From Mycobacterium florentinum (lineage in GTDB: Bacteria > Actinomycetota > Actinomycetes > Mycobacteriales > Mycobacteriaceae): a DNA stretch of 64,000 nt. Numbering within the stretch: position 1 is the stretch's first letter; each line of letters opens with the position of its first letter. The position numbers and the translations under genes are program-made. The DNA lies in NCBI RefSeq assembly GCF_010730355.1, contig NZ_AP022576.1:1178001-1242000 (forward strand). Reading direction: 5' to 3'. This document shows, piece after piece, positions 55,404 to 60,240 of this stretch. Under the pieces are notes generated by a model. It made no database searches. It was not told the origin of the DNA and was given only the letters and a program-made list of their open reading frames with translations.

Positions 55404-55628
55404 TGTTCAGCGCGCGCGCAGGTCAGGCCGATAGCGGGCCAGCGCCGACCGCACGGAGTCCATCGCATCGACGGCCCGGCCCTTGTCGACGGCCTGGATC
55501 GCCATCACCGGGATGTACTCGTCGTCCGGCAGGTCGATGTGCGCCCAGCGGCTGCCGACCGGGAACGACACGCCGACCAGATCTGACCAGATAATTAGTC
55601 TGTCCCCCAACAGATTTCGCACCGACAG
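55404..55628 (-). repeat. Direct repeat, copy 1 (225 bp), left edge of the accessory segment
   Basis: This block aligns without gaps to 60016-60240, same orientation, with 24 mismatches counted by eye (about 89% identity). Similarity stops abruptly on both sides. Mismatches become denser toward the upstream junction. It marks the left boundary of the LysR-P450-IS segment. Confidence 0.9.
55407..55628 (-). pseudogene. Truncated 3' copy of the PH-domain membrane protein gene
   Basis: This remnant encodes only the last 73 or so residues of the protein made in full at 60019-60489 ([11 protein letters not shown] onward, ending RYRPDLRAR). The frame stays open, with seven amino-acid changes by eye. 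The N-terminal membrane helices are missing. Upstream, an unrelated reading (MSQSYSQPSSGD) continues to 55769 and collides with the LysR start, so I do not regard it as a real gene. It lies in the native spot next to lprH. Confidence 0.85.
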
Positions 55629-55756
55629 TCGATACGCCCATCCTGGCGGGGCCAGGTGGGTCTCGCGAGGCGATGTGCCATTGAACGCAGGTGGAAGGAA
55701 TACGCGCAATCGGCGGTTACACCTGTGGAGCAGGTCACCGGAGGAGGGCTGCGAGT

Positions 55757-56716
55757 ATGACTGAGACAAATCCGGACGAGTCGGGCGATGTTGTCGGTGC
55801 CGCTGGTGCCGTACGCCGCGCCGACCTCAACCTCCTTCCAGCATTGGCTGCGCTGCTCCATGAGCGCCACGTGACGCGCGCTGCCGAAACTATCGGGATC
55901 GGGCAGCCTGCGATGAGTTCGGCGCTGAGGCGCCTGCGAAGGTTGTTCAAAGATCCCCTGTTGGTGCGGAACGGCCAGATACTCGAGCTCACGCCCTTGG
56001 GTCGCGCCTTGGTCGATCCCGTGCACGATGTACTCGCCGAGCTGGACCATTTGCTCAGAATCAGACCGACGTTCGATCCGGCGTCCGACCATCGATCCTT
56101 CACGATCGCCGCCAGCGACTATGTCACCCTGGTGCTGTTGCGGCCGCTGCTAGAGCAGCTCCACCGCGAAGCACCCAACGTCACCGTGAACGTGGTTCCG
56201 ATCAATTTGTCGACATCGATCGCCATCGAGCGTGCCCAGCTGGACTTGGCAATCATTCCGGATCAGTACATGACCTCGAAAGCGCCGTATATCCGGCGCC
56301 GGCAGTTGTTCACCGACAACTACGTGCCCGTTGTTGCCAAGCAGAATCTTGAGGCCGGCCGTACTTTGGAACGCGAAGCGATGCAAAGCCTGCCGTATGT
56401 CTGCTATTACGACCAATCTTGCGGCCCAGCGTTGGTTGACCAAGCGCTTGCTGAGATGGGAATCGAGCCGCGGATTGCGCTTGCCACAGCAAGTATCACG
56501 ATGGTTCCAGTGTTCGTCTCTGGCACACCCTATTTCGGGTTTGTACAACGACGACTACTCCGTCACTGCCACGTCCGCGACGACCTGCGCACGCTGCGCA
56601 CACCGGTCCGCATCCCCTCGATTGTCGAGCACATGTACTGGCACCCGGTGATGCACCGAGATCCCGCCCATCAGTGGCTGCGCGAACGAGCGACCACGTT
56701 GTCCGCCAACATCTAA
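55757..56716 (+). CDS. LysR-family transcriptional regulator
   Basis: A 319-residue LysR protein. The N-terminal winged helix (about residues 20-80) reads LNLLPALAALLHERHVTRAA, then GIGQPAMSSALRRLR. The effector domain follows from about 110. RNGQILELTPLGRAL and the length resemble the NodD/LeuO-like branch. It likely senses a small aromatic or fatty compound and controls the P450 gene downstream; the ligand is unknown. GGAGGAGG precedes ATG 55757. The codon use and lower GC set it apart from core genes. A perfect palindrome follows its stop by 4 bases. Confidence 0.92.
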   Translation: MTETNPDESGDVVGAAGAVRRADLNLLPALAALLHERHVTRAAETIGIGQPAMSSALRRLRRLFKDPLLVRNGQILELTPLGRALVDPVHDVLAELDHLLRIRPTFDPASDHRSFTIAASDYVTLVLLRPLLEQLHREAPNVTVNVVPINLSTSIAIERAQLDLAIIPDQYMTSKAPYIRRRQLFTDNYVPVVAKQNLEAGRTLEREAMQSLPYVCYYDQSCGPALVDQALAEMGIEPRIALATASITMVPVFVSGTPYFGFVQRRLLRHCHVRDDLRTLRTPVRIPSIVEHMYWHPVMHRDPAHQWLRERATTLSANI

Positions 56717-56720
56717 CGAC

Positions 56721-56745
56721 CGGTCATTGATCGGATCAATGACCG
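56721..56745. promoter_or_regulatory. Perfect 25-base palindrome, candidate operator
   Basis: Arms CGGTCATTGATC (56721-56732) and GATCAATGACCG (56734-56745) flank a single G. Inside is TTGATCGGATCAA, which fits the LysR box form T-N11-A. It could also be a hairpin, but no T-run follows, so a terminator is unlikely. It stands between the LysR gene and the P450 gene, 416 bases before the P450 start. The nearest weak ORF starts at 56826. Confidence 0.6.
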
Positions 56746-56825
56746 TCATCGTCGAATCCATCTGGCCGGGCGAGTCGAGTTCGGCCTAGCGTCGGTGGCG
56801 TAGAACGACGATAGAAAGCCACCCC

Positions 56826-58462: not shown

Positions 58463-58828
58463 ATGAAGATGTCCGGAGCCGAAATGCGCGAAATCCTGGA
58501 GTCGCTTCAACGCGACTGGCCCCCACTAGAGGAAGCACGGACAACACGCGAGCGATTTGTTGCCACCTCGATCAAGACGGCGATTGTGATGCTCGACGTT
58601 TCGGGCCCTGGCCTCGGTGGGGTAACCGGATCAGCCGCGCTCCCTCGAGCGGTAAGGGATAAGGCGCTAGCGGTGGCTGTTGCGAACTACGAGTTGGTAC
58701 GCAGACTGATCGATCAAGAAAGTGTTAGCAACAAAGCATTTTATGACCACGTTATACGCGAGGTTGCGATCCTCGCAGAACAGGGAGCGGAAGTGAGCCA
58801 GATGATCGCGAAAGCGATTGAGCAATAG
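58463..58828 (+). CDS. Hypothetical helical protein downstream of P450
   Basis: A 121-residue protein, mostly helical, with no known motif (MKMSGAEMREILESLQRDWP, and later AVANYELVRRLIDQESVSNK). Its GC is clearly lower than that of its surroundings, the lowest of any gene here by eye. GGAGCGG lies before ATG 58463. It starts 63 bases after the P450 stop and may be co-transcribed. Its stop lies 14 bases before the insertion sequence, which did not disrupt it. A link to P450 function is only a guess. Confidence 0.65.
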   Translation: MKMSGAEMREILESLQRDWPPLEEARTTRERFVATSIKTAIVMLDVSGPGLGGVTGSAALPRAVRDKALAVAVANYELVRRLIDQESVSNKAFYDHVIREVAILAEQGAEVSQMIAKAIEQ

Positions 58829-58837
58829 TCCGTCGCT

Positions 58838-59830
58838 CTAGCTGTACTGCCCAGGCAGGTTGGTCAACCGTGTGATGGGCGGGACCTTCCCGATCGCTGA
58901 GTGTTGCCGATGGTGATTGTAGGTATGCAGCCAGGGTGCTAATGCGGACCGGCGCTGGGCTTCGCTGTGGTAGTGACGGCTGAATGCCCATTCTGCTGCC
59001 ATTGTGCGGTGGAAGCGCTCTGCTTTGCCGTTGGTCTGAGGCCGATATGGGCGGGTGTGTTTTGGCTTGACGCCGAGCTCTGAACACGCGTGTCGCCAGG
59101 CCTTGGACTTATAACAGCTGCCGTTGTCGGAAATCACTCGTTCAACGACGACTCCCCGCGCGCGGAACCAACTCACTGCTCGGCGTAGGACCGCTATAGC
59201 AGTGTCGGCGGTTTCATCGTCGTGGATCTCGGCATAGGCCGCCCGGGAGTGGTCGTCGACGACGGTATGGACAAAGGCGTGGCCGAGCAGCTCATCGCGA
59301 TTGCGGCTGCGGCGGATGCCAGGCGTCGCCGCGCGATTCTTGCTGCCCTGCGCACGTCCGACGAACCGCCACCCGCCGCCAACAGGAATGTTGCCCAGTT
59401 TCTTGACATCGACGTGGATCAGCGAGCCTGGGTGTTCGTGCTCGTAGCGGCGAATCCGCTCACCCGTGCGGATATCGATGTGGGACAACCGGTTCAGTCG
59501 ACACCGAACCAGCACCGCGTGAACCGTCGAGGCCGGCATCGACAGACGCGACGCGATCGCCAACGGCGAGAGGCGGTGCCGCCACCGCAACGCCACGATC
59601 CGCCGGACAACAACCTCTGGAGTGCGGCTGGGACAGTGGTGTGGCCGGCTCGACCGATCGCCCATCCCGACCACACCCATGGCCACATAGCGGCTAGCCC
59701 AACGCTTGGCGGTTGGCCAGGACACACGGAAATGTTCGGCTGCCCGGGCAATCGGCCAGCCTTCGTCAACAATGCGGCGCGCGAGCAACAACCGCCCACG
59801 AGGGGTCAATACGGCATTAGCGTGGACCAC
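58838..59830 (-). CDS. IS481-family DDE transposase
   Basis: A 330-residue transposase from GTG 59830 (VVHANAVLTPRGRLLLARRI). The N-terminal helix-turn-helix region runs about 20-60. The catalytic triad is Asp141 (LIHVDVKK), Asp235 (VISDNG) and Glu271 (QTNGKAERFH), with 35 residues between the last two, a DD35E arrangement. The family motif PYRPQTNGKAERFHRT is intact. The reading runs through the left terminal repeat; the last sense codon spans the element edge and the TAG stop lies wholly in the flanking CTAG target. GGAGA lies a few bases before the GTG. A longer form from GTG 59878 is possible. Confidence 0.93.
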   Translation of the reverse strand: MVHANAVLTPRGRLLLARRIVDEGWPIARAAEHFRVSWPTAKRWASRYVAMGVVGMGDRSSRPHHCPSRTPEVVVRRIVALRWRHRLSPLAIASRLSMPASTVHAVLVRCRLNRLSHIDIRTGERIRRYEHEHPGSLIHVDVKKLGNIPVGGGWRFVGRAQGSKNRAATPGIRRSRNRDELLGHAFVHTVVDDHSRAAYAEIHDDETADTAIAVLRRAVSWFRARGVVVERVISDNGSCYKSKAWRHACSELGVKPKHTRPYRPQTNGKAERFHRTMAAEWAFSRHYHSEAQRRSALAPWLHTYNHHRQHSAIGKVPPITRLTNLPGQYS

Positions 59831-59955
59831 GAAGGTCTCCTGTTCGTTGTGGGTGCAGTGGTAGCAGCTCCACTCCACGACAGGAGACCTTCACCCATCA
59901 ACGACCGCTACAGCGTGTCGTCACACTTCCTCAACCAACCTGCCTGGGCAGTACA
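58843..59955 (-). mobile_element. Intact IS481-family insertion sequence (1113 bp)
   Basis: Perfect 22-base terminal inverted repeats lie at 58843-58864 and 59934-59955, each starting TGTACTGCCCAGGCAGG from the outside. Direct repeats TCTAGC flank the element at 58837-58842 and 59956-59961. That fits the NCTAGN target and six-base duplication described for IS481. One full transposase frame is inside. Perfect ends and duplications suggest a recent insertion. A 12-base inverted repeat at 59832-59843 and 59880-59891 includes the transposase ribosome site. Confidence 0.95.
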
Positions 59956-60015
59956 TCTAGCGAGCCATAACCTGTGCCCGAACACCCTGGCCTCATCTCA
60001 CGTCGTCGGTCCCGT

Positions 60016-60240
60016 TGTTCAGCGCGTGCGCAGGTCGGGCCGATAGCGGGCCAGCAGCGACCGCACGGAGTCCATCGCGTCGACGGCCCGCTCCTTGTCG
60101 ACGGCCTGGATCGCCATCACCGGGATGTACTCGTCATCGGGCAGGTCGATATGGGCCCACCGGCTGCCGGCCGGAAACGACACGCCAACCAGCTCTGACC
60201 ATGGAACTAGCCGGTCTCCCAACAGGTTTCGCACCGACAG
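60016..60240 (-). repeat. Direct repeat, copy 2 (225 bp), right edge of the accessory segment
   Basis: This is the counterpart of 55404-55628 and makes up the 3' end of the full-length PH-domain gene. The 45-60 bases between this copy and the insertion sequence end hold nothing recognisable. The repeat pair encloses about 4.4 kb. Confidence 0.9.

What the first reader, a model, noticed from the sequence alone, without database searches (positions are those of the whole stretch)
55404..60240. Accessory segment bounded by a 225-bp direct repeat of the PH-domain gene 3' end
Between lprH and ribH, which normally flank one PH-domain gene, lie about 4.4 kb carrying LysR, P450, a small protein and an IS. 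The two edges are gapless 225-bp copies of the gene's 3' end with 24 differences. That is what results when a circular element carrying a diverged copy of this gene end integrates by one crossover at the native gene. One full and one truncated copy are left. The 11% divergence suggests the fragment came from another mycobacterium. A tandem duplication followed by insertion is a weaker alternative.
Basis: partly seen in the sequence, partly recalled or inferred. Interest (0 to 1): 0.7.

Follow-up and report, generated by a model that had tools for sequence, protein, structure and literature searches.

The report
Imported cassette between gene-end copies
A small set of accessory genes sits in this mycobacterial chromosome between two different copies of the end of an ordinary gene, and the pattern of differences suggests that it came in from related bacteria by ordinary DNA recombination, although not by the single-step circle insertion first proposed.

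Summary
55404-55628 and 60016-60240 match without gaps over 225 bp with 24 differences. They enclose LysR, P450, a 121-aa ORF and an IS481-family IS. All eight nearest relatives have the empty site, and the two copies are not sister sequences (AU p=0.028).

The one-crossover circle model fails in its simple form. From the cassette edge (60002) to 60402, copy 2 is 98.8% identical to relative G212. That tract runs about 160 bp past the repeat, then stops: G000 groups with G212/G124 inside it (100/100) and with G031 on both outer sides (97/95, 97/98). Copy 1 looks native at its 3' end; its outer 102 bp carry 10 substitutions unseen in the eight relatives, against 0 in the other 123 bp.

Best reading: a donor segment of about 4.9 kb, already carrying the cassette between a G212-like PH end and a diverged, 5'-truncated PH copy, replaced native PH sequence through two homologous crossovers (55480-55527, 60402-60424). 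The IS inserted separately (6-bp target duplication). No site-specific recombinase or relaxase was found among the scanned ORFs, and no searched plasmid, phage or genome carries the cassette here.

The parts
54686..55369 (-). lprH (lipoprotein), native left neighbour; 54700-55403 groups with G031 (97/98)
   Evidence: ORF; adjacency; tree. The name lprH is from the finding and recalled synteny; no Pfam match
55404..55628 (-). Repeat copy 1: 5'-truncated PH gene end. 55404-55479 native-like (G031 96.1%, G158 94.7%); 55527-55628 anomalous (best of 42 relatives 86.3%, 10 sites private against 8 clade members in 102 bp)
55480..55527 (.). Inferred left recombination switch (between the last native-like and first anomalous difference)
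55757..56716 (+). LysR-family regulator, 319 aa (ATG at 55757)
57161..58399 (+). Cytochrome P450, 412 aa, with E-x-x-R, AGNETT and heme-Cys motifs intact (motif meaning recalled)
58463..58828 (+). 121-aa ORF without a family; 58-80% relatives in 5 other protein clusters
58843..59955 (-). IS481-family insertion sequence, 1113 bp; flanked by TCTAGC target duplication (58837-58842 / 59956-59961); transposase ORF 58838-59878
60002..60402 (-). Imported G212-like tract: PH 3' part plus 17 nt after the stop, 396/401 identical to G212
60016..60240 (-). Repeat copy 2, inside the intact PH gene; no site private against 8 clade relatives
60402..60424 (.). Inferred right recombination switch (G212-like to G031-like)
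60019..60489 (-). Intact bPH_6 gene, 156 aa (Rv1417 type by synteny, recalled and PMC2639381)
60486..60986 (-). ribH (DMRL_synthase, PF00885), native right neighbour
   Evidence: ORF; Pfam; flank tree 60424-60960

Best explanation
An accessory cassette (LysR regulator, P450, small protein; about 3.3 kb before the IS) entered the ribH-PH-lprH locus inside one imported stretch of mycobacterial chromosome, about 55.5 to 60.41 kb in the window. The donor stretch already carried the cassette between a G212-like PH gene end and a second, diverged and 5'-truncated PH copy. Recombination with the native PH gene at both ends replaced native sequence, leaving an intact hybrid PH gene beside ribH and a hybrid PH fragment beside lprH. 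An IS481-family element jumped into the cassette edge as a separate event. Shown: empty sites, two PH ends of different ancestry, the G212-like tract and its sharp right end, the target duplication. Supported but weaker: the left switch in copy 1. Inferred: that it was a single import, the donor's arrangement, and the route (chromosomal conjugation such as distributive conjugal transfer is plausible but untested). How the donor got its two PH copies is not known.
For: Empty site in 8 of 8 nearest relatives. Copy 2 equals G212 at 396/401 positions from 60002 to 60402, then 74/87 and 189/211. 22 of 23 informative sites are G212-like from 60006 to 60402; 28 of 33 are G031/G158-like from 60424 to 60960 (4 G212-like, 1 neither). 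States of G212 absent from six other clade members: copy 2 has 11 of 11 inside, 1 of 8 outside. Topology switch: G000 with G212/G124 100/100 inside, with G031 97/95 and 97/98 on the two outer sides. Control: 0 of 577 overlapping 400-bp windows outside the tract reach 98% to G212. Copy 1: 10 private sites in 102 bp vs 0 in 123 bp, Fisher p=0.0003. The G212-like sites start at 60006, 4 bp from the end of homology, so the tract most likely came with the cassette rather than by a later exchange at the PH gene (inference). Donor tracts from 59 bp to 226 kb are reported for distributive conjugal transfer (PMC3706393, passages).
Against: No genome carrying the donor arrangement was found. The left switch rests on 102 bp; the split point was chosen after seeing the data; against all 42 relatives none of the 10 states is private, and G031 and G180 have 7 private sites each in the same 225 bp, though more spread. 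The tree of the outer part puts copy 1 inside the clade on a long branch (90/73, bootstrap not settled), so drift of a decaying fragment cannot be excluded; only 2 of the 5 G212-specific sites that copy 1 lacks lie in that part. The tree of the 3' part leaves copy 1 unresolved, so 'native-like' rests on distances. Ranked by excess over the next relative, the G212 tract (4.2 points) is only fourth among local excesses of any genome, so mosaicism is common here; it stands out by its absolute identity. AU p=0.028 is moderate. The model moves the original duplication into the donor rather than explaining it.
Confidence: 0.55

Rival explanations
1. Single crossover of a circle, but with the crossover at 60402-60424 and a longer, G212-like PH fragment on the circle; copy 1 is then the native gene from the crossover on, later cut down to 225 bp by a deletion at its 5' side and partly decayed.
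For: Explains the G212-like tract in copy 2 and why copy 1 is native-like at 8 of 10 informative sites over its whole length.
Against: Needs an extra deletion of at least 160 bp with no trace, and leaves the 10-versus-0 split of private changes in copy 1 unexplained. No circle found.
Confidence: 0.19
2. Single crossover of a circle inside the 225-bp repeat, exactly as first proposed.
For: Copy 1 is chimeric in the predicted sense (diverged 5' part, native-like 3' part); empty sites; copies not sisters.
Against: Copy 2 is G212-like at all 16 informative sites from 60160 to 60402, where native sequence is required. It would need an earlier unrelated import from the same G212-like lineage.
Confidence: 0.06
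3. One-sided homologous plus illegitimate recombination (homology-facilitated illegitimate recombination) of a linear cassette fragment, in the donor or here: PH homology at the copy 1 side, end joining at 60001/60002.
For: The joint at 60001/60002 is abrupt, 17 nt past the PH stop, and the PH end there is an ordinary clade allele.
Against: In a single chromosome the two native parts should be the same allele, but the 3' parts of the copies differ (92.1%) and copy 2 alone joins G212/G124 (99/94). It may still be how the donor arrangement arose.
Confidence: 0.1
4. Tandem duplication of the PH gene end in place, followed by insertion of the cassette between the copies.
For: Would give the same layout.
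Against: The tree that holds the copies together is rejected (AU p=0.028); copy 1 has 0 of the 5 G212-specific states that copy 2 has in the repeat; 0 of 70 other same-genus genomes show a duplicated PH end.
Confidence: 0.05
5. Site-specific integration into the PH 3' end by an integrase, now lost or supplied by another element.
For: Many elements integrate at gene 3' ends (recalled).
Against: No site-specific recombinase family among the scanned ORFs of the segment; the switch points of the two copies differ and one lies outside the repeat.
Confidence: 0.05

Closest known systems
Mosaic chromosomal import in mycobacteria (distributive conjugal transfer type)
   Same: Replacement tracts with sharp ancestry switches bounded by homologous sequence, able to carry non-homologous genes; reported tract sizes 59 bp to 226 kb (PMC3706393, passages seen)
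   Different: Transfer itself and the donor were not observed; here the import would have carried a pre-existing partial gene duplication
Campbell-type single-crossover integration of a circle
   Same: Cassette bounded by direct repeats of a chromosomal gene end; an intact gene remains on one side
   Different: The two copies do not switch ancestry at the same point; no circular form or replication gene found in the searches made
Homology-facilitated illegitimate recombination
   Same: One homologous and one abrupt joint are compatible with how the donor arrangement arose (definition from the abstract of PMC3240628, listing)
   Different: In this chromosome both outer switches lie in homologous PH sequence
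IS481-family insertion sequences
   Same: Transposase passes the NCBIfam IS481 cut-off; 1113 bp; 6-bp TCTAGC duplication around CTAG
   Different: Nothing beyond an ordinary insertion; 4 copies in the genome, of which 2 show a perfect 6-bp and 2 a 5-bp flanking duplication

Membership tests
Homologous-recombination import tract | Ancestry switch points lie in sequence shared by donor and recipient | tested here: met
   Right switch 60402-60424 clear; left switch 55480-55527 weaker; both within the PH gene
Homologous-recombination import tract | Tract groups with another lineage than its flanks | tested here: met
   Trees; window control
Homologous-recombination import tract | A donor genome with the same arrangement | tested here: inconclusive
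   None; these draws cover only part of the genus and overlap
Campbell single-crossover integration | Both repeat copies switch ancestry at the same position, reciprocally | tested here: not met
Campbell single-crossover integration | A circular form of the element | tested here: inconclusive
   Repeat: no match in 72,556 plasmid records. Cassette DNA: 3 plasmids with 51-68 bp matches only. 50,697 phage records: only the IS matches. P450 and PH patterns: nothing in viral contigs. Excised circles in cells cannot be tested here
Integrative and conjugative / mobilizable element | Integrase and relaxase genes | tested here: not met
   Main genes and 19 further ORFs of 60 aa or more in the segment show no such Pfam family; the only integrase-core domain is the IS transposase
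IS481-family insertion sequence | IS481 transposase, inverted ends, short target duplication | tested here: met
Horizontal acquisition | Empty site in relatives and atypical composition | tested here: met

The most novel reading that the evidence does not exclude
The cassette is a recombinase-free mobile unit: because it is bounded by long copies of a gene end that mycobacteria generally keep, RecA could excise it as a 4.6-kb circle, leaving one full-length PH gene, and the circle or its chromosomal form could insert into the PH gene of a relative. The mixture of PH ancestries at its edges would be the scar of several such moves.
Probability: 0.12. Interest if true: 0.55.

Novelty: new member of a known kind. 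Interest (0 to 1): 0.34.

Why it matters
It shows at base resolution how an accessory regulator-P450 cassette can enter a core gene region without a recombinase of its own, leaving the core gene intact. It also shows that a direct-repeat duplication at an insert's edges need not mean single-crossover integration: the ancestry of each part of each repeat decides. The landing site follows ribH and the PH gene; in M. [quoted passage not shown]

Tried and rejected
Plasmid and phage forms: the repeat had no match in plasmids. The cassette DNA gave only 51-68 bp matches in 3 plasmids. The P450 protein matched 1245 plasmid records, all under 60% identity (best listed about 33-35%), so none is a close relative. 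In phages only the IS matched, 68.5% to one faecal phage record. P450 and PH protein patterns gave nothing in viral contigs (these find close relatives only). Two genome-contig scans found no relative of the P450 or of the small ORF, so species names were not obtained. One protein hit is labelled Mycobacterium montefiorense (58%), but its context could not be read. P450 function: many P450 relatives (524 PDB sequences at E 0.001; 6615 proteins among the 8000 candidates scored), but none of the 9 NCBIfam P450 models matched reached its cut-off, so no substrate is claimed.

Rejected: reciprocal chimeras in both copies, which I first read from a three-sequence alignment and wrote in the notebook; adding more relatives showed that copy 2 is G212-like throughout the repeat. 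Also disfavoured: site-specific integration, and tandem duplication in place.

Dropped rows: 13 of 58 loci were left out because their alignment to the repeat had gaps; 45 remained, 42 distinct. In one search, 24 of 57 loci (some genomes twice) had a detectable LprH: 23 at 9-40 bp from PH and one (L091) at an implausible place; 33 had no LprH match. Adjacency is claimed for the 8 nearest, which are among the 23. Wrong-frame translations of LysR and LprH were redone.
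Full report
WHAT IS THERE. The window lies in a complete 6,219,859-bp mycobacterial chromosome (one contig; genus by the relatives and the finding, no species name obtained). On the minus strand the order is ribH (PF00885), a bPH_6-domain gene (60019-60489), the accessory segment, a PH gene fragment, lprH. The two PH gene ends are 225-bp gapless copies with 24 differences; similarity extends the pair to 239 bp. The segment 55629-60001 holds LysR (55757-56716), P450 (57161-58399) and a 121-aa ORF (58463-58828), all on the plus strand, and an IS481-family element (58843-59955). 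GC of 55629-58842 is 60.2% against 66.7% for the window. Besides the main genes, 19 further ORFs of at least 60 aa in the segment have no Pfam match.

THE IS IS SEPARATE. The IS is 1113 bp and flanked by TCTAGC on both sides. Three other copies, 99-100% identical, lie in the genome, all at CTAG sites; of the four copies two show a perfect 6-bp flanking duplication and two only 5 bp. It is a simple insertion and did not build the segment; near-identity of the copies suggests it is recent. That IS481 itself duplicates a 6-bp CTAG-centred target is recalled; the one paper listed for it was not read.

EMPTY SITES. The nearest relatives by this locus are G158, G325, G031, G212, G180, G283, G124 and G409. 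All eight have a single PH gene followed after about 36-40 bp by lprH. In one search, none of 70 other same-genus genomes has a second strong PH match. At the DNA level the cassette is rare: of 396 genus genomes only G218 (LysR) and G339 (LysR and P450) give strong matches besides G000, while most of the 211 with any match have short local ones. By protein these are LysR 70% in G218, LysR 61% and P450 63% in G339. None of 395 other genus genomes has the small ORF, and 0 of 400 other genomes of a family draw has the P450-small ORF DNA at E 1e-20 (the draws overlap and are partial).

THE DECISIVE TEST: ANCESTRY ALONG THE LOCUS. If a circle with a diverged PH fragment had entered by one crossover, both copies should switch ancestry at one and the same position, reciprocally. 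Copy 1 shows a switch. Its last 76 bp are close to normal clade alleles (G031 96.1%, G158 94.7%) and run on into native lprH. Its outer 102 bp match none of 42 compared relatives above 86.3% and carry 10 sites private against the 8 clade members, while the remaining 123 bp carry none. Copy 2 shows no such switch. It is 98.2% identical to G212 over the repeat, identical in its last 76 bp and in the 17 nt past the stop (60002-60092: 91/91).

The G212-like stretch continues upstream of the repeat to 60402 (91/91, 144/148 and 161/162 positions) and then ends: 74/87 in the next block and 189/211 in the one after, where G031 is nearer (79/87 and 202/211). Informative sites go from 22 of 23 G212-like to 28 of 33 G031/G158-like. 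Trees agree: inside the tract G000 joins G212/G124 with 100/100; upstream it joins G031 with 97/95; on the lprH side it joins G031 with 97/98. As a control, none of 577 overlapping 400-bp windows elsewhere in about 12.6 kb of aligned flank reaches 98% to G212, whose mean there is 90.2%. Against this: by excess over the next-best relative the tract (4.2 points) ranks only fourth among local excesses of any genome, the largest being 6 points for G031, at 86-95% identity. Recombination is thus common here, and the tract stands out by how recent it looks.

WHAT FOLLOWS. The G212-like sites begin within 4 bp of the end of PH homology at the cassette edge. A later exchange at copy 2 would have had to cross over inside those few bases, so the tract most likely arrived joined to the cassette. 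Copy 1 has none of the 5 G212-specific states that copy 2 has in the repeat; 2 of the 5 lie in the outer 102 bp and 1 in the switch zone, so it is weak but consistent evidence that this part is not simply a worn duplicate of copy 2. The least costly history is an imported block of about 4.9 kb, PH end (G212-like) - cassette - truncated PH (third allele), exchanged with the native PH gene at 60402-60424 and 55480-55527. Chromosomal conjugation in mycobacteria yields such tracts, 59 bp to 226 kb long, average 33.8 kb (PMC3706393, passages); whether it acted here is inference.

LIMITS. The left switch rests on 102 bp and its position was chosen after seeing the data. Each of its 10 states is seen in at least one of the 42 wider relatives, and G031 and G180 themselves have 7 private sites each in the same 225 bp, more spread out. 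The tree of that part places copy 1 inside the clade on a long branch with 90/73 support and an unsettled bootstrap, and the tree of the 3' part leaves copy 1 unresolved; decay of a fragment fits too. The statement that the two copies are not sisters has AU p=0.028. A single crossover at 60402-60424 followed by a deletion is the strongest rival (0.19). How the donor came to have two PH copies is open.

CARGO. P450 motifs are intact, and the LysR-P450 order recurs in G339 near type VII secretion genes, so the pair is probably a functional regulator-enzyme unit (inference). The nearest full-length P450 relatives, 71-82% identical (11 of the 120 listed), come from JGI, ENA and lgn sources without organism names, probably metagenomes. 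The small ORF has 58-80% relatives in five other clusters. No substrate can be named.

VERDICT. Observation confirmed. Interpretation right about acquisition through the PH gene and about different alleles; not supported in the claim of a single crossover of one circle at the native gene in this chromosome.

Noticed in passing
55410-55769 (-): The truncated PH fragment is still open and fused in frame to a short cassette-derived N-terminus (120-aa ORF, TTG start), divergent from LysR; a chimeric PH protein is conceivable.
   Followed up: no
58838-58842: The transposase ORF has its stop codon in the CTAG target sequence just outside the IS end, so the target site supplies the stop.
   Followed up: no
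L002 (G000:C1:2459895-2464025): Another IS copy shares at least 12 bp of left flank (CGTCGCTCTAGC) with this locus, but its two flanks do not form a perfect 6-bp duplication.
   Followed up: partly
L059 (G339:C22) 9000-19037: LysR and P450 relatives lie near EccA-like, EccE and ParA-like genes of a type VII secretion locus.
   Followed up: partly
62880-63280: A 400-bp window where one relative (G031) is 6 points nearer than all others, a sign of further mosaicism in this region.
   Followed up: no
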